Assembly: GCA_947462255.1 (NCBI GenBank)
Contig: CANHOA010000016.1
Location: 1-64,000, forward strand
Direction: 5' to 3'
Length of the DNA stretch: 64,000 nt
Origin: Flavobacteriales bacterium
GTDB lineage: Bacteria > Bacteroidota > Bacteroidia > Flavobacteriales_D > Crocinitomicaceae
A program made the translations under genes and the position numbers. The notes beneath the pieces are model-generated. The model saw only the letters and a list, made by a program, of their open reading frames with translations. It was not told the DNA's origin and made no database searches. Positions 12,501-64,000 of this stretch are shown here, piece by piece; position 1 is the stretch's first letter, and every line of letters starts with the position of its first letter.

Positions 12501-12887
12501 GTAACGGAACGTCTTAGTTTATATCAGGCACTTGATAATTTAAAAAACAAAGAAGAGTTAGATCGTTTCTCAGTAGATTTAGTAGATCGTTTTGGACCTT
12601 TACCCAAAGCCGCTAAGGAGCTCCTATTTTCTTTCGAATTACGTTGGTTGGCCCAAGAGTTAGGCATGGAGCGCTTAGTGATTAAAAGTGAAAAATTAGT
12701 GGGGTATTTTATTTCGAATCCACAATCTTCTTTTTACGAAACAGAAACATTTACCTTATTACTCAACAAAATCATGAGCATAGGCAAAGAATATCGCCTT
12801 GTACAAAACAATGATAAACTGCGCTTGGTAATCGAACCGGTTCGCCACATCAAAGATGCCTTTGAGAAAATGATGGGATTGAAATAA
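9555..12887 (+). CDS. mfd: Transcription-repair coupling factor Mfd
   Basis: This 1110-aa ATP-dependent translocase removes stalled RNA polymerase at DNA lesions and recruits UvrA. In order it has: an N-terminal UvrB-homology region (FERVDFVYEPGQFAIRGGII, IEFFGDEVESIR), the RNA-polymerase-interacting domain (GDYVTHIDHGVGQFSGLE), and RecG-like helicase lobes with Walker A CGDVGFGKTEVA, the DEEQ box IIDEEQKFGV, TLTATPIPRTLQ, and motifs V-VI TTIIESGIDI...QLRGRVGRS. The C-terminal TRCF domain is also present. It is full length, with no missing motif. The start was set by the promoter that overlaps the alternative TTG codon. Confidence 0.96.
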   Translation: MERKQFLHVFKSYSPVEQTAQALFRPKARVHWSGLVGSATSVCATAVADQVPGNHIFILGDKEQAAYFLNDLQGLYPSDKRVHFYPSSYRLPYQVEAIDNANVVARAEVLAKISKGDNTWVITYPEALFEKVPTQQNLIENTFRVEVGKSYAIDFLNDLLIEYQFERVDFVYEPGQFAIRGGIIDVFSFSNDFPFRIEFFGDEVESIRTFDAANQLSLSKHVSLMIIPNIQGQMVQNGIGSFFSFLGMSTKVWLSSYERLEDALHKGFEKAKDAFKKMTISPLDAAPDALFLSPKELKDNLAALSIIEFGPVYHFPASDKITFDFLPQPSFNKNFDLLKADLLQKQESGFLNIIFSNQAQQIERLFQVFEDIGGGVNFEPMDFALQEGFVCPTVKIVCYTDHQIFDRYHRFRLKEGFRQTKQALTLKEIYNLQKGDYVTHIDHGVGQFSGLETIDVNGKPQEAIRLLYKDGDVLYVGIHSLHRISKFTGKDGAVPKMNKLGTQAWATLKNKTKKKIKELAFDLIQLYAKRRSQPGFAFSQDNYLQNELTASFMYEDTPDQNKASLDVIKDMESNTPMDRLICGDVGFGKTEVAVRAAFKAVCDSKQVAILVPTTILSMQHYRSFKERLKDFPCTVDYINRFKSTKDTSETLKKLASGKIDILIGTHALVSEKVKFKDLGLMIIDEEQKFGVSVKDKLKTLRTSVDTLTLTATPIPRTLQFSLMGARDLSIINTPPPNRQPVLTEVISFNEETIRDAIAYEVTRGGQVFFVNNRLSNIKEISGMIQRLCPGVRVAIGHGQMDGKQLEKVMMDFIDGKYDVLIATTIIESGIDISNANTIIINDANQFGLSDLHQLRGRVGRSNKKGFCYLIAPKFSLLTSEAHKRLEALVQFSDLGAGFNIAMKDLDIRGAGNMLGGEQSGFISEIGFEMYQKILNEAMQELKDTEFKELFDDRQTDTFGSFVSDCIFETDMEVRIPDDYVNNVTERLSLYQALDNLKNKEELDRFSVDLVDRFGPLPKAAKELLFSFELRWLAQELGMERLVIKSEKLVGYFISNPQSSFYETETFTLLLNKIMSIGKEYRLVQNNDKLRLVIEPVRHIKDAFEKMMGLK

Positions 12888-54257: not shown

Positions 54258-54779
54258 TTTAGCGCTTAGCGACGAGATTAATTACAAACTTCGGTAAAGT
54301 TAAAATTATATATTTCAAGATGATTAACTAACATAGGATATTCCTATTTTGGTAAAATCAAGAAAACCTTAATTTTCATTGAGCAAATAATAAGTTATTG
54401 GCAGAAAATTATTTCCCAACGGGGAAGTAAGTTTGCAAAAAAGTGGGAAGTAACCTTTATATAAGTAGCTCAAAAATCGTGGTTATTTTCCACTATAGCG
54501 ATCAAAAACGAATATATTTTCCATTAATAAAACGATTTTGCTCTCAATAATGGTGATTTTTTTTCATTAAAATTAATTGCTAATTTGGACCCGTTATTTT
54601 AAGGAGTTTGTTTAAACGCTCGTCAAAATGTTATGAATACGCGCTTCAATTGTGATTTTGAAATGAATTCAATAAGAATTAAATTATTATTTCTTGCATT
54701 AGTGGTAATCCTTTTAGAATTGATTATTACTAAGATAATATCATGACAATTCAGTTATTAAATTGTAATAAATTAGTTG
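54258..54779. other. AT-rich spacer left of the defence island
   Basis: No established gene is seen. ATAGGA-TAT-TCCTAT (54333-54347) is a short inverted repeat in front of the cyclase gene. A stretch near 54408-54430 is a near-palindrome of TTATTTCCC type. An AAGGAG is at 54601-54606 with no good frame after it. One small hydrophobic open frame is given separately. Confidence 0.5.
54663..54746 (+). CDS. Possible 27-aa hydrophobic membrane peptide
   Basis: A frame from ATG 54663 to TGA 54746 encodes MNSIRIKLLFLALVVILLEL followed by IITKIIS. It has a basic N-terminus, about 18 hydrophobic residues with one central Glu, and a short polar end: the plan of a single-span peptide or type I toxin. 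There is no good ribosome site or promoter, and AT-rich DNA yields such frames by chance. Listed only because it stands between the cyclase and the defence operon. Confidence 0.2.
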   Translation: MNSIRIKLLFLALVVILLELIITKIIS

Positions 54780-54846: not shown

Positions 54847-56184
54847 ATGCCTAAAAAATCGAAATACACTTTTATTGATCTTTATGCCGGTTTAGGCGGA
54901 TTCCATCAAGCACTTTCTTCGCTTGGTCACAGAGGTGTTTGGGCATCAGAATACAACTCAAACTTGAGAGAACTTTACTCAAAAAATTTTCCTAATACAC
55001 CTATTGAAGGTGATATTTTTAAGGTGGACATTAAAGCTATTCCCGATCACGATATAATTTGTGGTGGATTTCCTTGTCAACCATTTTCAAGAGCTGGTTT
55101 TATGAAAGGATTTGCGGACGAGTCCAAAGGAAATCATTTTTTCAGGATTTTGGATATCATTGATTCTAAACAAGCCGAAAATAAAGCGCCTAAATTTGTG
55201 TTTCTTGAAAACGTGGAAACATTATTAAAACATGATAACAAAAATACTTTTAAAGTAATAAAGGATAGTTTGGAAGCAAGAGGGTACGAATTAACATTTA
55301 AGATTTTGTCTCCACATGAATTCAATGTGCCACATCATAGAAGAAGACTTTTTATAGTTGGAGTGCTATGTTCAATGGGAGGACTAAAAGATTTTCAGTT
55401 CCCTGAACCATTAGATATTTCGAATACAACGATTGAATCAATTTTAGATTACGATTTTAAACCAATGAAAGGTGAAAACTTACATTTAAAAAAAGAAACA
55501 CAAGCAGTTATTGATCTATGGCAAGATTTTATAGTGAATTTTCCTAAAAACAAAAAATTACCCGGCTTTCCAATTTGGGCACATGAATGGGGTGCTAATT
55601 ATCCATATGCATTAAAGACACCTCGAAGTAGTAAATTGGAAGATTTAAATATATCGAGAGGGACATTTGGAATTAAAATCGAAGGCACAAACTTTGAGAA
55701 TATCATTGATAATTTTATCCCAAGATACGCTCAAAAAGGAAATATATTTCCGCAATGGAAAATTAATTACATTAGAAAAAACAGGGAATTCTTCGAGGAA
55801 AATAAAGAGTACATAATTGACTTTCTAAAGCGACATCCCGAAATTCATCAATTTGATTTTTCATATCAAAAATTAGAATGGTCATGTCAAAATGCACTTA
55901 GAACTTTCGATGATAAAATAATTCAATTTCGTCCATCAGGACTTCGTGTTAAATTAAATAATTGGGCTCCTGCATTAACAACTGTAAGAACCCAAAATGT
56001 ATACATTCCAAAATTGGGCAGAAAATTATCAATTCACGAGATTGCCAAATTACAATCAATGAATTTAGATCATCACCCAGATATATATAATGGTAACTTT
56101 ATCGCAAATGGCGGTTACCGAGCTTTTGGAAATGCTGTAAATGTTGAAGTCGTTAAATTAATTGCTAAAAATTTATTAAAATGA
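54847..56184 (+). CDS. DNA (cytosine-5) methyltransferase
   Basis: This is a 445-aa protein from ATG 54847 (an upstream in-frame TTG at 54817 adds ten residues). All main m5C motifs are in order: I FIDLYAGLGGFHQAL, IV GGFPCQPFSRAG with catalytic Cys, VI VFLENVETLL, VIII VPHHRRRLFIVGV, a target-recognition stretch about 190-370, IX RPSGLRVKLNNWAPALTT and X GNAVNVEVVKL. The recognition sequence is unknown. Its TGA overlaps the ATG of the next gene by 4 bp, so the operon is translationally coupled. It would mark self DNA in the island's defence system. Confidence 0.93.
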   Translation: MPKKSKYTFIDLYAGLGGFHQALSSLGHRGVWASEYNSNLRELYSKNFPNTPIEGDIFKVDIKAIPDHDIICGGFPCQPFSRAGFMKGFADESKGNHFFRILDIIDSKQAENKAPKFVFLENVETLLKHDNKNTFKVIKDSLEARGYELTFKILSPHEFNVPHHRRRLFIVGVLCSMGGLKDFQFPEPLDISNTTIESILDYDFKPMKGENLHLKKETQAVIDLWQDFIVNFPKNKKLPGFPIWAHEWGANYPYALKTPRSSKLEDLNISRGTFGIKIEGTNFENIIDNFIPRYAQKGNIFPQWKINYIRKNREFFEENKEYIIDFLKRHPEIHQFDFSYQKLEWSCQNALRTFDDKIIQFRPSGLRVKLNNWAPALTTVRTQNVYIPKLGRKLSIHEIAKLQSMNLDHHPDIYNGNFIANGGYRAFGNAVNVEVVKLIAKNLLK

Positions 56185-57845
56185 AAGAAAAAAAAGTAGG
56201 TATCCGTTTTAAGGCGCAAGCATATAGAATGCTTAAAGCAATGCCCGGAAAGTTATGGTTTGTTTTTTCAGAATTTATCGATAATTCAATTTCAAGTTAT
56301 CTCCAAAATAAAGATAAACTAGAGGAACTTTATGGATCTGATTATAAATTGATAATCGAAATTAATTTTGATAATGATGATACTATTACGATTGCAGACA
56401 ACGCAGGAGGTATTGATTCACATAATTGGGAAAGAGCACTTAACCCAGGAGATGTGCCAGATGATATTACAGGATTGAATGAGTTTGGTATGGGGATGAA
56501 ATATTCTGCAGTTTGGTTATCAAATGTTTGGACTCTAAGAAGTCGGAGCATAAATGAAAAACATGGCCGTGAGGTTACCTTTGATTACCTAAAGGTTATT
56601 AAAGAGAATCTAGAAGAACTTGAATACATTGATGTTCAAATGAAACCTGGCACAATATTAACTCTAACAAAATTAGAACATGATAAATTACGTCCTTTTC
56701 AATGGGCTAAGACTCGTAATCATATATCTAGTATTTATAGAAATTTTATAAGAGAATACCAACCGTTTTTTGAGGATTTCATTATAAATAGTAATATACA
56801 GATTAAAGCATTTGGTGAAGTTTTAGTTTATGAAGAAAAAGGTTTTTTATTTGATCAATGGTATGATGATCGACAAAACAAGATCATTTCTTTGGAGAAC
56901 TCACCAATGATTGAATGGAAATATAAATTTTCAGAAACAATAATAGATCCGAAATCAAAAAGTGAATTGAAATTTTCTGGTTTTGTGGGCATTTTACCTG
57001 AAATAAAACAGGGGAGTAATGGATTTTCATTCTTTCGAAGAGGAAGAGTTATTGAAGGATCTGGAGACGAAAAAATATTTCCCACATCGATTTCTTCGAA
57101 TCCGAGTTCCTTTCCTTACAAGAGACTTTATGGAGAATTTCACTTTGATGATACGGAAAATGGTCATGTTGAATCCGCCTTCAATAAGAGTGCTTTTCAA
57201 AATCGTAATTTTATAGATTTTTGTATCGATCAAGTACCGAGATATATAAAAAATATTGAGTTTCCAGAATTCCCTAATAGGTCATTTAATATGAGAACTC
57301 AGGCACTTGAATATAGAAGTAATTTTAATAAAGTAAAAGCAGAAGCAAGTATTAAAGAGTTCAATAAAAATGAACAAAAAAAGATTGATAATATTGAATA
57401 TCAGGTAGAGGTAGAGGCACAAATTGCTAGTACAACTATTGATGCTATTTCTAAAACTGAAAATGATTTATTTGATTTATTACCTATTCCAGAAAATTTG
57501 GTTTATTCTTTAAGTTCAACTGTATCTGGTTTAAAATATAATTTTGTTTTATCCCACTTTGAATCAATTAATGATACATGTCATTTATATGAAGTACATC
57601 GCAGTAAAGTAAAAGAAGACAAAACTGGTAAGTCAATGGATGTTGAAATAAAAATCAACCTAAAACATAAAGTTTTTATACAAAATGAATCCTTACGTAA
57701 TGACCACTCTAAATTTTTTATGCTTATTAATTTTATTAGGTGTTTAGCATATTCTGAATGCGTTTCTAAAGATTCAGGGGCAAGAGATGTTTTTATTTTT
57801 CGTAATTCTATTAATCAATTTATTAATATTTTTTTAAATGAGTAA
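56181..57845 (+). CDS. MORC/MutL-like GHKL ATPase
   Basis: This 554-aa protein has an N-terminal GHKL ATP-binding fold. The N box is FSEFIDNSISSYL (Glu and Asn that bind Mg and activate water), G1 is ITIADNAGGID, G2 is GLNEFGMGMKYSAVWL. An S5-like region follows, with IEWKYKFSE and GILPEIKQGSNGFSFFRRGR, as in prokaryotic MORC and MutL-like proteins linked to restriction genes. The C-terminal 150 residues are mostly coiled coil and a small alpha/beta part. It probably acts as an ATP-driven DNA clamp. It overlaps the methyltransferase by 4 bp and the Z1 gene by 8 bp. Confidence 0.88.
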   Translation: MKEKKVGIRFKAQAYRMLKAMPGKLWFVFSEFIDNSISSYLQNKDKLEELYGSDYKLIIEINFDNDDTITIADNAGGIDSHNWERALNPGDVPDDITGLNEFGMGMKYSAVWLSNVWTLRSRSINEKHGREVTFDYLKVIKENLEELEYIDVQMKPGTILTLTKLEHDKLRPFQWAKTRNHISSIYRNFIREYQPFFEDFIINSNIQIKAFGEVLVYEEKGFLFDQWYDDRQNKIISLENSPMIEWKYKFSETIIDPKSKSELKFSGFVGILPEIKQGSNGFSFFRRGRVIEGSGDEKIFPTSISSNPSSFPYKRLYGEFHFDDTENGHVESAFNKSAFQNRNFIDFCIDQVPRYIKNIEFPEFPNRSFNMRTQALEYRSNFNKVKAEASIKEFNKNEQKKIDNIEYQVEVEAQIASTTIDAISKTENDLFDLLPIPENLVYSLSSTVSGLKYNFVLSHFESINDTCHLYEVHRSKVKEDKTGKSMDVEIKINLKHKVFIQNESLRNDHSKFFMLINFIRCLAYSECVSKDSGARDVFIFRNSINQFINIFLNE

Positions 57846-60099
57846 TACAATAGCAAAACCTAAAAACTATAATAATTCTCAAACTGATTATAAGGTGCAT
57901 ACTGGGCAAAAGTTTGATAGTTTTATTAGTCGTTTACCTAAAATGTCCCAGGACGAAATTGATAATATCGTAAAAAGTACAATTGAAATTTTACGTAAAT
58001 GCGTGCCGCCAAGTTATCATGAAGATGTTCCAGTTTCAAACACAGGCCTAGTGTTAGGATATGTACAGAGTGGTAAAACGATGTCTTTTACTGGTTTGAT
58101 CACACTTGCAAGTGACAATAATTATAAATTGATAATTGTTCTTGCTGGTACAACTAGAATATTATTGAATCAAACAATTGAGCGTCTAACGGAAGATCTT
58201 AATGATAGGAATTCATTTGAGATAATTAGTGAAAGTAACACATTATATAAAGATCCAAATACAATAGCCAATATAATTATAAATCCTCAACGAAATAAGA
58301 CTGTAATCCTTACTATTTTAAAGCATCATAAACATATTAAACATATAAGTAATATTTTAGATAATATCGAATTAAAAAACGCTCTTTTAAGTAAAAGCGT
58401 CTTAATTATTGATGATGAAGCAGATCAAGCAAGTTTAAATGGCTTGGCTAGAAAAAATTGGAAATTAGATCAGAAATCAAAAAATTTATCCGAAGAAGAA
58501 AAACAACTTCATTCATTCACAACTACATACAGTAATATTTTAGAATTAAAAAGCAAGTTAGATTGCCATTCTTATATACAATATACTGCAACACCCCAAG
58601 CTAATATTCTAGCGGCACAAAGGGATCTACTAAGGCCGTCTTGGGCAGTAGTATTGGAGCCTGGAAATAAATATACTGGTGGTAAAGTATTTTTTAATGA
58701 TACTTCAGATTTAATCGTGGAAATTAAAAATGAAATTGAAGATGAAGATCCAGAAATGCCAAATGAATTAATAGATGCATTTCTACTTTTCCTTGTTGAA
58801 TCTGCGCTTTTAACTTGCGAATATAAAAATATAAAGAGATTACGTAAAAAAATGACTAGGACTTCGATGATGGTGCATGCAGATAGATTGATAGAAAAAA
58901 ATTCTATTTATATGCGTTGGCTAGTTGCTTATTCAAAAACAATTCGTCTTGGTATTGATTCAAATGAGGAGGAGATAGTTATTAATATAAAAAAATATTA
59001 CGAGAAGGTTAAAATTTTATTGACTAATTATTTCGATATATTCCCAGTTTACGAGGAAGTTTATCAAAATATCAGATACTTTGTTTTAGATGAAATTCGT
59101 TTTTGGTTTGTTGCAGGCGACGGTGATTCACAAGTTCAATGGGATCAAGGCAATCATCATGTATTGATTGGAGGCCAAAAATTAGACCGGGGATTCACGG
59201 TTAAAGAATTGATTACCACATACTTGCCTCGTCAAACAAAAGCAATTTCAAATGCTGATACTATTGAACAAAGGTGTCGATTTTTCGGGTATAAAAAAGA
59301 GTATATTGAGGCTTGTAAGGTGTTTCTTCCCAAACAATCAATTGATGAGTTTAGTGAATATATATTTCATGAAGAAAAACTTCGTGATCTTCTTAGAACA
59401 GGTAATATACAGGATTACTATAATAATAATACACTTATGCGTTTATTTGGTCTTAATCCGACATCCATAAACAAAATTCCGGGCAACATAATTCGTAATG
59501 ATTTCTTTAGTTATAAATTTTTAGAACCTGATTTGGAGAATTTGGATGAGACTAATCAATTGATTACTTCTTTTATCAATGACTCAAGTTTCAAAGGAGA
59601 ATTATCTTATTCGAAGGCAGTAGAGGACATTAGTACCGATAATTTACATAGGGTTAGTATTAGCAATGTCAAAAGTCTAAAGGGACTTTTGACAAAAATT
59701 AAAGTAAATCGTATTAAAGATAAAATGATTTTAGATCAATTTATTGCATTGTTGGGTGATATCAATTATGATTTAAAAGTTTGGCTGATTGAAATGGCGT
59801 ACAAAAGAGACGGGTTTAGACCAAGATCTATAAAGGAAACTGGCGAATTAAAGGCATTGTTTACAAATCATCCACCAGAATTTGGTGACACAAAATTATT
59901 AATGGATAAAATAGCAGGAGGACAATTTTATAGTGATTATAAAAATGAAATCATTGTTCAAGTTCATAAAGTTAAAATAAAGGATGTGAAAAATGAAGAT
60001 TCTATTTACAAAGCTTATTCTGGCAAAGTATTTTATATAATTGCATTTCGTTATCCGGATGAGAAAACATCAAATTATATAAATGTTCAATATGATTGA
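57838..60099 (+). CDS. Z1-domain helicase-like ATPase
   Basis: This 753-aa protein has superfamily II helicase motifs: Walker A LGYVQSGKTMSFTGL, Walker B SVLIIDDEADQAS, a motif-III-like YTATPQANILA, and motif V/VI GGQKLDRGFTVKELITTYLPR followed by ADTIEQRCRFFGYK. Between and after these lies the Z1 domain (PF10593), which occurs only beside such ATPases. The Q-Cys-R-x-FGY motif is the Z1-family form of motif VI. It probably translocates on DNA for the nuclease encoded next. The start ATG lies inside the 3' end of the MORC gene; the following gene overlaps by 17 bp. Confidence 0.88.
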   Translation: MSNTIAKPKNYNNSQTDYKVHTGQKFDSFISRLPKMSQDEIDNIVKSTIEILRKCVPPSYHEDVPVSNTGLVLGYVQSGKTMSFTGLITLASDNNYKLIIVLAGTTRILLNQTIERLTEDLNDRNSFEIISESNTLYKDPNTIANIIINPQRNKTVILTILKHHKHIKHISNILDNIELKNALLSKSVLIIDDEADQASLNGLARKNWKLDQKSKNLSEEEKQLHSFTTTYSNILELKSKLDCHSYIQYTATPQANILAAQRDLLRPSWAVVLEPGNKYTGGKVFFNDTSDLIVEIKNEIEDEDPEMPNELIDAFLLFLVESALLTCEYKNIKRLRKKMTRTSMMVHADRLIEKNSIYMRWLVAYSKTIRLGIDSNEEEIVINIKKYYEKVKILLTNYFDIFPVYEEVYQNIRYFVLDEIRFWFVAGDGDSQVQWDQGNHHVLIGGQKLDRGFTVKELITTYLPRQTKAISNADTIEQRCRFFGYKKEYIEACKVFLPKQSIDEFSEYIFHEEKLRDLLRTGNIQDYYNNNTLMRLFGLNPTSINKIPGNIIRNDFFSYKFLEPDLENLDETNQLITSFINDSSFKGELSYSKAVEDISTDNLHRVSISNVKSLKGLLTKIKVNRIKDKMILDQFIALLGDINYDLKVWLIEMAYKRDGFRPRSIKETGELKALFTNHPPEFGDTKLLMDKIAGGQFYSDYKNEIIVQVHKVKIKDVKNEDSIYKAYSGKVFYIIAFRYPDEKTSNYINVQYD

Positions 60100-61039
60100 T
60101 ATATTAAATAGTAAATTCACAGATGAACTACAACTAGGTTCTTATCATGTTGAGAAGTTTGATTCTTTTAATAACCATTATATCGGTATAGATAAAGATA
60201 ATAATATTGCATTATTAATAAATAATATTAATTCTCAAAACCTAACCCTAACTTCTTACAAAGGTGAAAATTTGGAAATACTTTTTGATCAGGAAACAGA
60301 CATTATTAATGCCACATCAAACATCTCAACTAGATTTACCATATTACGATTATTAAATAAAACCAAGAATACACAGTATTATTTCTGTAAAATATGTGAA
60401 ATTTTGTTGACTATTTTAGGTGATGAACCTGATATAAAATCTGTTGAAAAAGAGGTGTTTATTTTAAAGGATATTTTCAAGAACTTGACGAATAAGCTGT
60501 TAAAAGATGAAATCGGTTTATGGGGCGAGCTTCTTGTGATTTCGATTCAAAATAATATTGGTTCTGCAGTAAATGCTTGGCATATATCCAATACAAATAG
60601 GATTGATTTTAATGATGGTAAAGTAAAAGTTGAAATTAAAACTACAACATTAAATGAAAGAAAACATGTGTTTAAGTTAAATCAATTAAAGAGTCATTTT
60701 AGGGAAAATGTTATAGTTGGCTCTGTCGTTACAGAACAAATTGATAATGGAGTATCCATTAAAGATTTAATAAATAAAATCGAAGGGAATATAAATTCCC
60801 AAGTTAAAATTTTATTTAATAAAAAGTTAGCTGAATGTTTAGGATCTGATATTTTTGGTGTTGAGTTTAAAAATTTTGACTATAATTTTGCGATAGAAAA
60901 TTTTCTTTTATTTTATGCACAAAGCATACCGTCTATCGAATCTGAAATACCAGATGAAGTTTCTGACATACAATTTTCATCCTTACTTAAGGAAAATAAT
61001 TGTATTCAGAATATAGATATATTTCAAATTTTCGATTGA
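60083..61039 (+). CDS. DUF4420 PD-(D/E)XK nuclease
   Basis: This is a 318-aa protein (an alternative start at 60092 removes three residues). It has the DUF4420 layout: an N-terminal beta-rich part, then the nuclease core with Glu in DEIGLWGELLVIS, Asp in NRIDFNDGKVK and the E-x-K of VEIKTTTLNERKHVF, then FKLNQLKSHF. These are the metal-binding residues of PD-(D/E)XK enzymes and all are present. It overlaps the Z1 gene by 17 bp and meets the 539-aa gene tail-to-tail with a 16-bp overlap. It is the probable cutting subunit of the system. Confidence 0.87.
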   Translation: MFNMIDILNSKFTDELQLGSYHVEKFDSFNNHYIGIDKDNNIALLINNINSQNLTLTSYKGENLEILFDQETDIINATSNISTRFTILRLLNKTKNTQYYFCKICEILLTILGDEPDIKSVEKEVFILKDIFKNLTNKLLKDEIGLWGELLVISIQNNIGSAVNAWHISNTNRIDFNDGKVKVEIKTTTLNERKHVFKLNQLKSHFRENVIVGSVVTEQIDNGVSIKDLINKIEGNINSQVKILFNKKLAECLGSDIFGVEFKNFDYNFAIENFLLFYAQSIPSIESEIPDEVSDIQFSSLLKENNCIQNIDIFQIFD

Positions 61040-62643
61040 CTAATAATTACTTCTACTTCATCAAACCAATTATTTATTCTTTTGTAATCTTCTAATCCAT
61101 GTTTGAATGAATAATTTAGGAATTTATTGCTAGCTTGCAGAAAATCCTTTGATTTCAAGTTCGAAATAATTTCTTGTTGCTCATTTTTTGTAAATTTTAA
61201 AAATATATTCCCTTGAGATATTTTATTAAGATTTTCAAATATACTTTTAGTTACAATTTTAGTTTCAAACTCTATTTGGGGGTTCCAGTTAAATTTTTTA
61301 TAATCAACTTCATTTAAACTTTTTATGTGAAAATAGGTTCCGTCAAACTTGTTGATCAATCCTAAGCCTTTTATTTTATATATCGGCGCAGGCCGCTTTT
61401 TGGTCTGATAAAATAAACCCACAGGGATGTTATTTTCCATACATTTAATTAAATAATCATTTGTCCATTCATTATTATCTTCTTTATGATACTTTAAATG
61501 CCATGAACCATCCTTATTTTCAAATATTTTATCACTGTATGAATTATCCATCAAAACCTTAATACTAAGAACAAAATTTTCACTCTTAGGCTTATGAATT
61601 CCTTTAGCGGAATTAAATAGATAAATTATACCATTATTAAATTCCTTTTCACCACTTACATCAATATAATTTATTGTTTTGTTTTTATTAATAACAAACC
61701 AGCACAATGCGTCCTTATGTAAGGGGCTAATTGAAGATAAATCAATTTTAGCTCCGTATATAAATGAATTTTGATGTCGAATAAATTCTTCAAATGAAAT
61801 TTCAAATCCAATTTCAGCAATATTTTTTTCTTTTATTTTTTGACAATTTTCACGAATTATCTGAATAAAATCGGTTCCAGAGAAAATATCTAACCAAACT
61901 TTTGTGTTCAATGGGATTTGATTATCAATAATACTGAAATTGCTATATAAATACCAAGTAAATACCCATTCTTTAAATTCAAAGATTTTTAGTAAATCGA
62001 TTAAATTGAAGTGAATTGCATAAGACCAAAAGCGATCATTTACTATATCCTTAATAAGACCAAACTCTAAAGCCTTCTCATGAATGAACTCAAGCTCATT
62101 TTTGTTAATAATACCATCATTAAAAACAAGTTCGAAAATTTTATCGAGAAATGGATTATTTGTTTCTAAATAGTCCTTGGCTTCTTTTAAAAGTTCGATG
62201 GATAAATTTAATTCGTTAGTTTTTTCAATTAAAAATCTTTTTTCTATTTCAGATATACGGTTGTCGAACGTAATCAACTGAATTAAATTATTCAGTCTTT
62301 CATTATTGGTTTCAAGAATTTTAAAATCGGTTTCATGGGCAATATTAAATTTATCAATCATGAAGTCGAATGAAGGCAAATTTGTAATGAATTGCCGTTT
62401 TTGGTCTTCCAGTTCAAAAACTTCTTTTGAGCCAATTTGTATTGGAACATCGATTCGTTCTTGGCCGCATATTCCATTAAGCTTTTTAAATAAATCTAAT
62501 TTATCTTGTAATTTAACAAAGCCAAATGTCTCCATATCCTTCTCGCTAAAAAATGGTATTATGGGTTCTACAGCATCTCTCCTTTCTCGACGAATATTAG
62601 AAATTAATTTTATTGGTCGCAACCAAAAATTATACCATTTCAT
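61024..62643 (-). CDS. Unknown 539-aa protein, TerB-like helical domain plus SRA-like module
   Basis: I do not recognise the whole protein. Residues about 125-200 (RISEIEKRFLIEKTNELNLS, FELVFNDGIINKNELEFI) look like TerB-type helical repeats, with an EF-hand-like N-D-G-x-I loop. Residues about 340-445 (GIHKPKSENFVLSIKVL, DGSWHLKYHKED, NNIPVGLFYQTKKRPAPIYK, IKGLGLINKF) resemble the SRA-like module that precedes HNH nuclease domains in McrA-type restriction enzymes, but no HNH motif follows. It could read modified DNA or serve as an adaptor. It is the last gene of the AIPR operon, 86 bp after the 120-aa gene, with a 9-bp inverted repeat before its start. Confidence 0.6.
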   Translation of the reverse strand: MKWYNFWLRPIKLISNIRRERRDAVEPIIPFFSEKDMETFGFVKLQDKLDLFKKLNGICGQERIDVPIQIGSKEVFELEDQKRQFITNLPSFDFMIDKFNIAHETDFKILETNNERLNNLIQLITFDNRISEIEKRFLIEKTNELNLSIELLKEAKDYLETNNPFLDKIFELVFNDGIINKNELEFIHEKALEFGLIKDIVNDRFWSYAIHFNLIDLLKIFEFKEWVFTWYLYSNFSIIDNQIPLNTKVWLDIFSGTDFIQIIRENCQKIKEKNIAEIGFEISFEEFIRHQNSFIYGAKIDLSSISPLHKDALCWFVINKNKTINYIDVSGEKEFNNGIIYLFNSAKGIHKPKSENFVLSIKVLMDNSYSDKIFENKDGSWHLKYHKEDNNEWTNDYLIKCMENNIPVGLFYQTKKRPAPIYKIKGLGLINKFDGTYFHIKSLNEVDYKKFNWNPQIEFETKIVTKSIFENLNKISQGNIFLKFTKNEQQEIISNLKSKDFLQASNKFLNYSFKHGLEDYKRINNWFDEVEVIISQSKI

Positions 62644-62658
62644 TTTTCTTTTTTTAAC

Positions 62659-62708
62659 TTAATGGGTTGGTTAAATTTTTCGACAAAATAGTTTTTTTTA
62701 CCCATTAA
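62659..62708. promoter_or_regulatory. 9-bp inverted repeat before the 539-aa gene
   Basis: TTAATGGGT (62659-62667) and ACCCATTAA (62700-62708) are perfect inverted copies 32 bp apart, between the 120-aa and 539-aa genes. It could be a repressor site pair, or an RNA stem-loop that modulates readthrough. No exact -7 box is present. Confidence 0.45.
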
Positions 62709-62729
62709 ATAGGCCTTTTATATTTCCGT

Positions 62730-63092
62730 TTATCTTTGATACAAATCAATAAGTTCTATTAACTCATAAACTTTTTGCTTCCGTTTATTTTGCTCAAAAT
62801 TCATCCCATTGTATACATATCGCGATGAATCTAAAATTGAACCATCCCGGGTCATATCGTTTGCGTCTCTAAGAAACTCTTCTTCATGTTCTATTCTTAA
62901 AATCATGGCTTGTAAATTACTTTTGCGTTTTGATTCAAATTGAAGACTTAGAATAGATTTTCCTTTTGATTTTAAAAATGAATTATAGAAATCATTTCCT
63001 GCAACTAACATAAAATCAATTAATTGCTCTTCTGTTTTAAAGCGTTTTTCTCCCTTTCGTTTCAAATATTTAATAACTATTGATTCTTCCAT
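62730..63092 (-). CDS. Unknown 120-aa protein in the AIPR operon
   Basis: I do not recognise this protein. It is basic and mostly helical, with no signal peptide. Visible are a Lys-rich N-terminus (IKYLKRKGEKRFKTEEQLID), a central helical section with SNLQAMILRIEHEEEFLRDA, and a C-terminal helix KVYELIELIDLYQ. The gene is 16 bp after AIPR and so certainly in its transcript. It may be a partner or regulator of AIPR. Confidence 0.6.
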   Translation of the reverse strand: MEESIVIKYLKRKGEKRFKTEEQLIDFMLVAGNDFYNSFLKSKGKSILSLQFESKRKSNLQAMILRIEHEEEFLRDANDMTRDGSILDSSRYVYNGMNFEQNKRKQKVYELIELIDLYQR

Positions 63093-63108
63093 GTCGCATA
63101 AATTTTAG

Positions 63109-64000
63109 TTAAATATTAATTTTGTATTTCTCAACAAAGGACTGATATCCTTCCATAATTTCAGTTGAGAGGCTCATTTTTTCTTCTAACGTGTCAAAGA
63201 ATATTTCTTGTGATTTCTTCGCCCTCGAAAATTGAGAAGGATTACCTCCGCATTTCTCATTGAAAATTGAAATGGTTAATACATTAAAAACTTTAGCAAA
63301 ATCTTTATTTAATGAATTGGCAGATGCTTTATCAGAAAAATATTTTTCAATGTCAAAAACCAAGTTAGAGAATTCTAACATAACATCGAATTTTCGTTTC
63401 AATTCCCAGTATAAGGCAATATTATAAAATGTATTAATACTGTTGATTTGTTTGATCCGGTTAAGTGATTCTATTTTTCCATTTATTGTCTTTTTTTCGG
63501 ACTCGGACTTACTATTATTTAAATCTGATTTATATGTTTCTAGTTGTTTCTCGTAAAAATCTTTTTGAAATTTCTTTGCTTTATCATGTAAAAAACGAAC
63601 AAACAAAAGTTCATCAATATCATGATTGTTTCTTTTGAACAGTTCCCCATTTTCACCTTCAACTAATGAATATTTAAAAACTGAATCGTAATCCTGATTA
63701 ATAATGTAATTCGAATTTGAATTGTCTCTATTAAATAGTGTACTCTTTTTATCTTTAGATGTAAATGGTTTTTTTAAAAACCCAGCAAAACATAATTGGG
63801 CTATTTCATCATTTGAAATAATTCTAAATTTTAAATAAGATTCCGACTTGGGTTTTAGTTCGCCTCTTCGAATTTGCATGAATATCGAAGGGGTATTATC
63901 CTTTAATTTCTTTTGCAACTGAAGTTGCTCCTCATTGTTGGCTACCATATCACGACTTGATATGGGATTCTGAGTATTATTATAAATGGTAATATTTCTT
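63109..64000 (-). CDS. AIPR-family abortive-infection protein, N-terminal part outside the window
   Basis: The visible 296 residues are the C-terminal part; the frame runs through the right edge, so an ATG at 63948 is internal. The segment ITIYNNTQNPISSRDMVANN is the signature of the AIPR family (PF10592), and the following FMQIRRGELKPKS...IISNDEIAQLCFAGFLKKP matches its C-terminal half. AIPR proteins confer phage resistance by abortive infection and often accompany Z1/MORC/methylase genes. A central coiled coil (about 150-185) is present. It is transcribed towards the methylase operon. Confidence 0.83.
   Translation of the reverse strand, partial: RNITIYNNTQNPISSRDMVANNEEQLQLQKKLKDNTPSIFMQIRRGELKPKSESYLKFRIISNDEIAQLCFAGFLKKPFTSKDKKSTLFNRDNSNSNYIINQDYDSVFKYSLVEGENGELFKRNNHDIDELLFVRFLHDKAKKFQKDFYEKQLETYKSDLNNSKSESEKKTINGKIESLNRIKQINSINTFYNIALYWELKRKFDVMLEFSNLVFDIEKYFSDKASANSLNKDFAKVFNVLTISIFNEKCGGNPSQFSRAKKSQEIFFDTLEEKMSLSTEIMEGYQSFVEKYKINI

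What the first reader, a model, noticed from the sequence alone, without database searches (positions are those of the whole stretch)
54847..64000. Defence island: methylase-MORC-Z1-DUF4420 operon convergent with an AIPR operon that carries two unknown genes
Seen: four plus-strand genes overlapping by 4, 8 and 17 bp with intact methylase, GHKL, helicase and PD-(D/E)XK motifs, and a minus-strand operon AIPR-120 aa-539 aa. Known: methylase, MORC, Z1, DUF4420 and AIPR were proposed as a linked restriction-type system by Iyer, Abhiman and Aravind (2008). Inference: the two extra genes are part of the system and give it a new function, e.g. sensing modified DNA and triggering abortive infection. 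The head-on layout with a 16-bp 3' overlap also suggests opposed expression of the two halves.
Basis: partly seen in the sequence, partly recalled or inferred. Interest (0 to 1): 0.85.

Follow-up and report, generated by a model that had tools for sequence, protein, structure and literature searches.

The report
Restriction cassette with swappable methylation reader
This is a known type of bacterial DNA-restriction (probably anti-phage) gene set, and next to it lies a protein that looks like an exchangeable reader of chemically marked DNA, which may tell the system what to attack or spare.

Summary
Genes, overlaps and head-on layout are as described; AIPR runs past the window to 65,040. The plus-strand genes (C5-methylase, MORC-type ATPase, DEAD-Z1 motor, DUF4420 nuclease) are a published restriction-type core: 61 of 81 Z1 loci hold all four in this order. 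That half is not new.

The 539-aa protein is the interesting part. Residues 307-448 model as an SRA fold, the base-flipping 5mC reader (Z 11.6 to SUVH5, 10.3 to TagI). In one other genome with the same core (methylase 69% identical) a 540-aa gene lies in the same convergent place, also overlapping DUF4420. It shares the TerB-like middle but carries a different reader, probably of the DUF3427 (SauUSI) class. Other genomes place MTaX1, HNH or Vsr genes there.

The 120-aa ORF is an orphan, and AIPR was not found as a regular partner. So the modified-DNA idea gains support; the seven-gene abortive-infection system does not. New variant of a known kind.

The parts
54847..56184 (+). C5-cytosine DNA methyltransferase (445 aa), the self-marking gene
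   Evidence: PF00145 2.5e-65; PCQPFS and ENVE motifs in the translation; 69% identical to the L008 methylase
56181..57845 (+). MORC-type GHKL ATPase (554 aa)
   Evidence: HATPase_c_3 1.4e-9; GHKL motifs invariant with L008 (53%) and L009 (31%)
57838..60099 (+). DEAD-Z1 ATP-dependent motor (753 aa)
   Evidence: Z1 3.8e-27, DEAD 9.6e-7; Walker A and DDE invariant; NCBIfam MzaC 125.4 bits against cut-off 1500
60083..61039 (+). DUF4420 PD-(D/E)XK nuclease (318 aa)
   Evidence: PF14390 2e-28; E-D-ExK invariant among three sequences
61024..62643 (-). 539-aa TerB-like plus SRA-fold protein, convergent with DUF4420
   Evidence: homologue in the equivalent convergent position in L008; SRA fold
61300..61725 (-). 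SRA-fold reader domain of the 539-aa protein (residues about 307-448)
   Evidence: AlphaFold pLDDT about 70-90 over most of it, with a dip to 46 at 331-340; VIA Z 11.6 to SUVH5 SRA, 10.3 TagI, 8.7 AspBHI, 8.2 MspJI; relatives fused to HNH_2
61933..62325 (-). TerB-like conserved middle of the 539-aa protein (residues about 107-237)
   Evidence: 39% identity to the L008 protein; 30 s.d. above shuffles; profile A6 reaches three Pfam TerB proteins at 9e-5 to 8e-3
62730..63092 (-). 120-aa orphan ORF; membership not supported
   Evidence: no family match of weight; no convincing relative in 345 genomes
63109..64000 (-). 3' part of the AIPR gene (643 aa; start at 65,040, outside the window); neighbour in the same cassette, not a regular partner
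   Evidence: PF10592 4.2e-33 for the near-full protein; PADLOC AbiU 7.3e-20, MzaE 7.9e-11
54423..54542 (.). possible left border segment of a cassette slot
   Evidence: 89% identical to a same-genus genome where another restriction cassette follows; that genome has a second, 83% copy of part of it

Best explanation
The plus-strand genes encode an ATP-dependent restriction-modification machine. The methylase marks host cytosines, the DEAD-Z1 protein is a double-strand DNA motor, the MORC/GHKL ATPase is a clamp or switch, and DUF4420 cuts (families shown; roles inferred from families and precedent). The convergent 539-aa protein is the machine's exchangeable discrimination subunit. Reading the host's own mark as a brake is nearly as likely. 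AIPR and the 120-aa ORF lie in the same cassette but are probably an add-on.
For: Core in this order in 61 of 81 loci. L008 carries the same core (methylase 69%, MORC 53%, Z1 50%, DUF4420 44%) with a 540-aa gene convergent and overlapping DUF4420 by 12 bp. The 539/540 pair is alike in the TerB-like middle (30 s.d. above shuffles, 0 of 2000) and the tail (3.5 s.d., 7 of 2000), and not in the N-terminus, linker or reader region (at or below the shuffle mean). The 539 reader has the SRA fold. The 540 reader region matches two proteins by tblastn (1e-11, 5e-7) whose domain is Pfam DUF3427 (1.9e-16, 1.8e-10); DUF3427 is the proposed recognition domain of the 5mC/5hmC-dependent enzyme SauUSI (PMC3874153, passages). 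Relatives of the 539 reader carry HNH_2 (L069, L092, L093, L137), and one of the two relatives of the 540 reader carries HNH (L154; L153 is cut by its record end), while 539 and 540 show no HNH match. A reader-HNH fusion of the 539 kind is itself the gene after DUF4420 in a Sphingomonas core locus (L069). The commonest occupant seen there, MTaX1, is described as potentially discriminating modified DNA (PMC10853773, passage): 12 of the 35 ORFs within 100 bp after DUF4420. Motor precedent: CglI/NgoAVII, with a C5-methylase and a DEAD-Z1 ATPase needed for cleavage (PMC4267653, abstract and passages).
Against: Only two members of the 539/540 family are in hand, and 80 of 81 core loci lack one. The TerB assignment is by profile only: Pfam TerB does not match 539, the profile finds no TerB structure in the PDB, and the region alone modelled poorly (pLDDT 51). 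DUF3427 was not matched directly in 540, and the profile of its reader does not reach SauUSI in the PDB. No experiment shows binding to modified DNA or contact with the core.
Confidence: 0.58

Rival explanations
1. The 539-aa protein is a self-recognition brake: it binds the methylase's own 5mC and holds the MORC-Z1-DUF4420 machine inactive on host DNA.
For: 539 and 540 show no HNH match although relatives of their readers carry one, so they could bind host 5mC harmlessly; a C5-methylase gene is in the facing operon in both genomes.
Confidence: 0.25
2. All seven genes are one system, with AIPR and the 120-aa protein as the abortive-infection output.
For: All seven lie between the same two border segments; AIPR is part of the type II systems of Miller et al. 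(PMC9523054, section 11) and of PADLOC's MZA set as MzaE; 6 of 29 AIPR loci of the phylum have a DUF4420-like ORF near AIPR at E below 0.01.
Against: In the two of these six that were scanned the DUF4420 gene is of the MzaD kind; no match to the window AIPR in the 81 core loci; AIPR in 4 of 39 core-bearing genomes and not in the 540-bearing one; the 120-aa ORF is an orphan.
Confidence: 0.15
3. The 539-aa gene is an unrelated neighbour that landed beside the core by cassette stacking.
For: Only 1 of 81 core loci has a TerB-reader homologue; the site also houses other restriction genes in a same-genus genome.
Against: The one homologue lies in the same position and orientation, overlapping the same gene, in a different family of the phylum.
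Confidence: 0.12

Closest known systems
MORC / SF2-helicase / RE-fold predicted R-M operons (Iyer, Abhiman and Aravind 2008, PMC2292703)
   Different: The sections read do not describe a TerB-reader gene facing the core
Z1 + DUF4420 + methylase systems, types I and II (Miller et al. 2022, PMC9523054)
   Same: Core genes; type II adds AIPR and is associated with MORC (section 11 read)
   Different: Z1 there 925 aa, here 753 aa; AIPR here is convergent and not regular with this core lineage; no reader gene named in that section; the figure was not seen
MZA (mzaABCDE)
   Same: Z1, DUF4420-type and AIPR proteins; weak MzaC/MzaD/MzaE matches
   Different: Far below equivalog cut-offs (125.4 of 1500; 34.6 of 420 bits); a methylase is present here
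CglI / NgoAVII (PMC4267653)
   Same: C5-methylase with DEAD-Z1 ATPase required for cleavage
   Different: Nuclease there is PLD plus B3 domain in a three-gene system; no MORC or DUF4420 gene
SRA-HNH enzyme TagI, EVE-HNH enzyme VcaM4I (PMC7897488), DUF3427 enzyme SauUSI (PMC3874153)
   Same: PUA/SRA-class or DUF3427 reader of modified cytosine
Shango and Bunzi
   Same: TerB-domain proteins in phage defence (PMC10952713, table passage)
   Different: Other systems; no methylase or SRA reader stated in that passage

Membership tests
Iyer 2008 MORC-helicase restriction neighbourhood | GHKL ATPase with intact motifs | tested here: met
Iyer 2008 MORC-helicase restriction neighbourhood | SF2 helicase with C-terminal DThhQXuRhFG motif | tested here: met
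   DTIEQRCRFFG in the translation; deviates at two positions of the consensus (E for h, C for u)
Iyer 2008 MORC-helicase restriction neighbourhood | RE-fold protein with E-D-ExK | tested here: met
Iyer 2008 MORC-helicase restriction neighbourhood | restriction activity | not testable with these tools
   needs phage assays
MZA system | MzaC and MzaD above NCBIfam equivalog cut-offs | tested here: not met
   125.4 of 1500 bits and 34.6 of 420 bits
Miller 2022 type II | Z1, DUF4420, methylase, AIPR and MORC together | tested here: met
   all present within 54847-65040
Miller 2022 type II | gene layout as in their figure | not tested
   figure not held; AIPR here is convergent with the core
CglI-like | PLD/B3 R-protein | tested here: not met
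   no PLD match among the seven proteins
SAD_SRA (PF02182) | match to the Pfam model | tested here: not met
   no match at E up to 10 in the host genome
SAD_SRA (PF02182) | SRA fold | tested here: met
   Z 11.6, rmsd 2.9, 116 residues to SUVH5 SRA
TerB (PF05099) | TerB sequence family or fold | tested here: inconclusive
   no direct Pfam match; profile A6 finds three Pfam TerB proteins but no TerB structure; model too poor
DUF3427 (540-aa relative in L008) | match to the Pfam model | tested here: inconclusive
   no direct match; its homologues L153 and L154 match at 1.9e-16 and 1.8e-10

The most novel reading that the evidence does not exclude
TerB-like proteins form a socket into which different nuclease-free 5mC readers (SRA class, DUF3427 class) are plugged, giving a MORC-Z1 restriction machine a separate, swappable subunit that reads the methylase's own mark and licenses self DNA: an epigenetic brake inside a restriction system, encoded head-on to the nuclease gene it controls.
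Probability: 0.2. Interest if true: 0.75.

Novelty: new variant of a known kind. Interest (0 to 1): 0.5.

Why it matters
How Z1/MORC restriction-type systems choose their DNA targets is, to my knowledge, not settled. If the gene after DUF4420 is an exchangeable discrimination subunit (MTaX1, reader-HNH, Vsr, TerB-reader), the role of each can be tested by swapping one gene. It would also link bacterial MORC ATPases to SRA-class 5mC readers, of interest because eukaryotic MORC and SRA proteins both act in DNA-methylation pathways (recalled, and only an analogy).

Tried and rejected
Chance ORFs: rejected, because of the conserved core order. MZA membership: rejected on cut-offs. AIPR and 120 aa as regular parts: not supported. 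A tail shared by 539/540 and MTaX1 proteins: hmmsearch and hhalign gave no support. Direct searches with the 539 protein found no relative in genome contigs (5 pattern stretches, 0 confirmed), in viral contigs (3, 0 confirmed), or in 239 other genomes of the family. The TerB profile in viral contigs gave 136 stretches, 0 confirmed. Of the seven weak hits of the TerB profile, I Pfam-scanned the three with plain open frames of about 150 aa (all TerB); the other four were not scanned and look unrelated. The TerB region alone modelled at pLDDT 51 and was not fold-searched. In the fold table, rows for residues 91-162 are long-helix matches and were not used. Of the 35 next genes, 16 were not Pfam-scanned; some may be spurious ORFs of GC-rich contigs. 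For AIPR I gave the genomes of 38 of the 80 loci, plus G347 and G342; one was not held.

Papers. Sections read: PMC2292703 sections 4 and 5, PMC9523054 section 11. Passages only: PMC5379612, PMC10853773, PMC7897488, PMC7641849, PMC3874153, PMC7159879, PMC10952713. Abstract and passages: PMC4267653. The title of Toliusis et al. 2018 was seen in a reference list only. I saw no description of a TerB-reader beside a Z1 core in the listings or in the passages read; the library lacks most subscription papers, and listed papers were mostly not opened.
Full report
Observation. The ORFs, overlaps and orientation are as stated. The AIPR gene is cut by the window end; the contig goes on to 66,611 and the full protein is 643 aa from the ATG at 65,040. 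Families: C5-methylase, HATPase_c_3, Z1 plus DEAD, DUF4420 and AIPR. The 539- and 120-aa proteins match nothing convincing in Pfam, NCBIfam, PADLOC or PHROGs. G+C falls from about 0.37 to 0.26-0.31 from about 54 kb to the window end.

The core is known and common. With one duplicate removed (L027, the same as L009) and L008 and L009 added, 81 loci were scored. In 61 of 81 the order is methylase, MORC, Z1, DUF4420 on one strand; many of the rest are cut by contig ends. Iyer et al. 2008 describe MORC with this kind of SF2 helicase and an E-D-ExK protein (sections 4-5). Miller et al. 2022 describe Z1, DUF4420 and methylase systems, with AIPR and MORC in type II (section 11). So the plus-strand half is not new. 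MZA equivalog cut-offs are not met.

The gene after DUF4420 is a variable slot. Of the 81 loci, 35 have an ORF within 100 bp after DUF4420 (28 same strand, 7 convergent); 32 have it farther away, 10 lack a DUF4420 hit and 4 end there. I Pfam-scanned 19 of the 35. Twelve are MTaX1 (one, L028, fused to an AAA_5 domain), two HNH_2, one Vsr, one YhcG/DUF1016, and three have no match over cut-off, L008 among them. [quoted passage not shown]

The 539-aa protein has a partner elsewhere. In genome G347 (same phylum, other family) the core is closely related: methylase 69%, MORC 53%, Z1 50%, DUF4420 44%. It faces a convergent 540-aa gene overlapping DUF4420 by 12 bp (L008). The two proteins share residues about 107-237 of the 539-aa protein (39%, E 2e-23; 30 s.d. 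above 2000 shuffles) and a tail (3.5 s.d., 7 of 2000 shuffles reach it), but not their N-termini, linkers or reader regions. A profile of the shared middle, run on 395 genomes of the phylum, gave 10 genomes at E up to 0.01: the two, a 454-aa protein in another operon (5e-9, L138), and seven weaker ones, of which three (9e-5, 5e-4, 8e-3) are Pfam TerB proteins and four were not scanned. TerB-like is therefore likely, not proven; a PDB profile search found no TerB entry.

Residues 304-450 or so match proteins with an HNH_2 domain: a Rhizobium plasmid protein with no methylase annotated in the 20-kb stretch shown, a Vibrio phage protein found in two records, viral contigs (4 loci, L137 scanned), and the gene after DUF4420 in a Sphingomonas Z1 core (L069). 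An AlphaFold model from four sequences is confident over most of this part (about 70-90, one dip to 46) and poor elsewhere. Against the PDB it aligns to SRA domains: SUVH5 with methylated DNA Z 11.6, TagI 10.3, AspBHI 8.7, MspJI 8.2, LpnPI 8.0. Foldseek also ranks an SRA protein first (KRYPTONITE 3.1e-4). Pfam SAD_SRA is not met by sequence.

Its residues 333-478 match two Bacillaceae plasmid proteins (1e-11, 5e-7) whose N-terminal domain is Pfam DUF3427. The Priestia one carries an HNH domain and lies near a C5-methylase gene; the Bacillus one is cut by the record end and lies beside a gene annotated as BglII/BstYI-type endonuclease. DUF3427 is the proposed substrate-recognition domain of SauUSI, which cuts 5mC and 5hmC DNA (PMC3874153 passages). 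The Pfam model does not match 540 itself. So in both genomes a domain that elsewhere sits on an HNH protein appears on a TerB-like protein with no nuclease found.

AIPR and the 120-aa ORF. The window's AIPR finds relatives in 38 of 395 phylum genomes, its own included. Of 29 fetched loci with about 1.5 kb on each side, six have a DUF4420-like ORF near AIPR at E below 0.01; in the two scanned it is MzaD-like. With this core, AIPR is rare: 4 of 39 core-bearing genomes searched (38 of the 80 loci chosen by me plus G347 and G342; one not held), none in G347, and the place of the four relative to the core was not determined. No ORF of the 81 loci matched the window's AIPR. The 120-aa ORF has no convincing relative: 13 other genomes of 345 gave weak hits, best 0.0018, inside a 751-aa frame; none in plasmids.

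One cassette. The segments 54423-54542 and about 65340-65423 flank all seven genes. Similar segments (89% and 92%) flank a different set in a same-genus genome: a PLD-helicase-DUF3427 protein, a NUDIX protein and an HNH protein. The left segment is partly repeated there (83%), so it may be a repeat rather than a border. In another genome of the genus (G221) the gene left of the island is followed by other genes.

Mechanism. Shown: families, gene order, modelled fold of one domain, module swap. Inferred: the methylase marks self, the DEAD-Z1 protein is an ATP-driven DNA motor as in CglI/NgoAVII (PMC4267653), DUF4420 cuts, MORC clamps or switches, and the 539-aa protein reads modified cytosine and passes this on through its TerB-like part. 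The direction is open: attack on modified foreign DNA is favoured slightly by the activating relatives; sparing of self is favoured by the missing nuclease and the resident methylase.

Verdict. Observation confirmed, interpretation partly supported; new variant of a known kind; interest 0.5.

Noticed in passing
window 54423-54542 and about 65340-65423 (L002:5341-5424); L176:7799-7918 and 12710-12794: Two short conserved segments bracket the whole island; in a same-genus genome they bracket a SauUSI-like PLD-helicase-DUF3427 gene with NUDIX and HNH genes, so this may be a cassette slot. A partial second copy of the left segment lies at L176:5591-5659, beyond a HipA_C gene.
   Followed up: partly
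L138:3835-13984: DUF4007, large ATPase, PAPS-reductase, 454-aa TerB-like, SF2 helicase and GHKL ATPase genes in one minus-strand run: another defence-like operon pairing a TerB-like protein with helicase and GHKL.
   Followed up: partly
L069:13043-13942: Reader domain of the 539 kind fused to HNH_2 directly after DUF4420 in a Sphingomonas Z1 core.
   Followed up: yes
L093:2632-3912: A Vibrio phage carries the same reader-HNH fusion near its integrase, next to a gene annotated PD-Lambda-5.
   Followed up: partly
window 62659-62708: Perfect 9-bp inverted repeat (32 nt apart) between the 120- and 539-aa genes; possible operator or separate promoter.
   Followed up: no
L028:13139-14773: MTaX1 domain fused to an AAA_5 ATPase in the slot after DUF4420 in Pontibacter.
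   Followed up: no
L155:7575-13728: A Hymenobacter plasmid carries methylase, ATP-binding protein, Z1 protein, a hypothetical and an HNH gene in a row, so the core also travels on plasmids.
   Followed up: no
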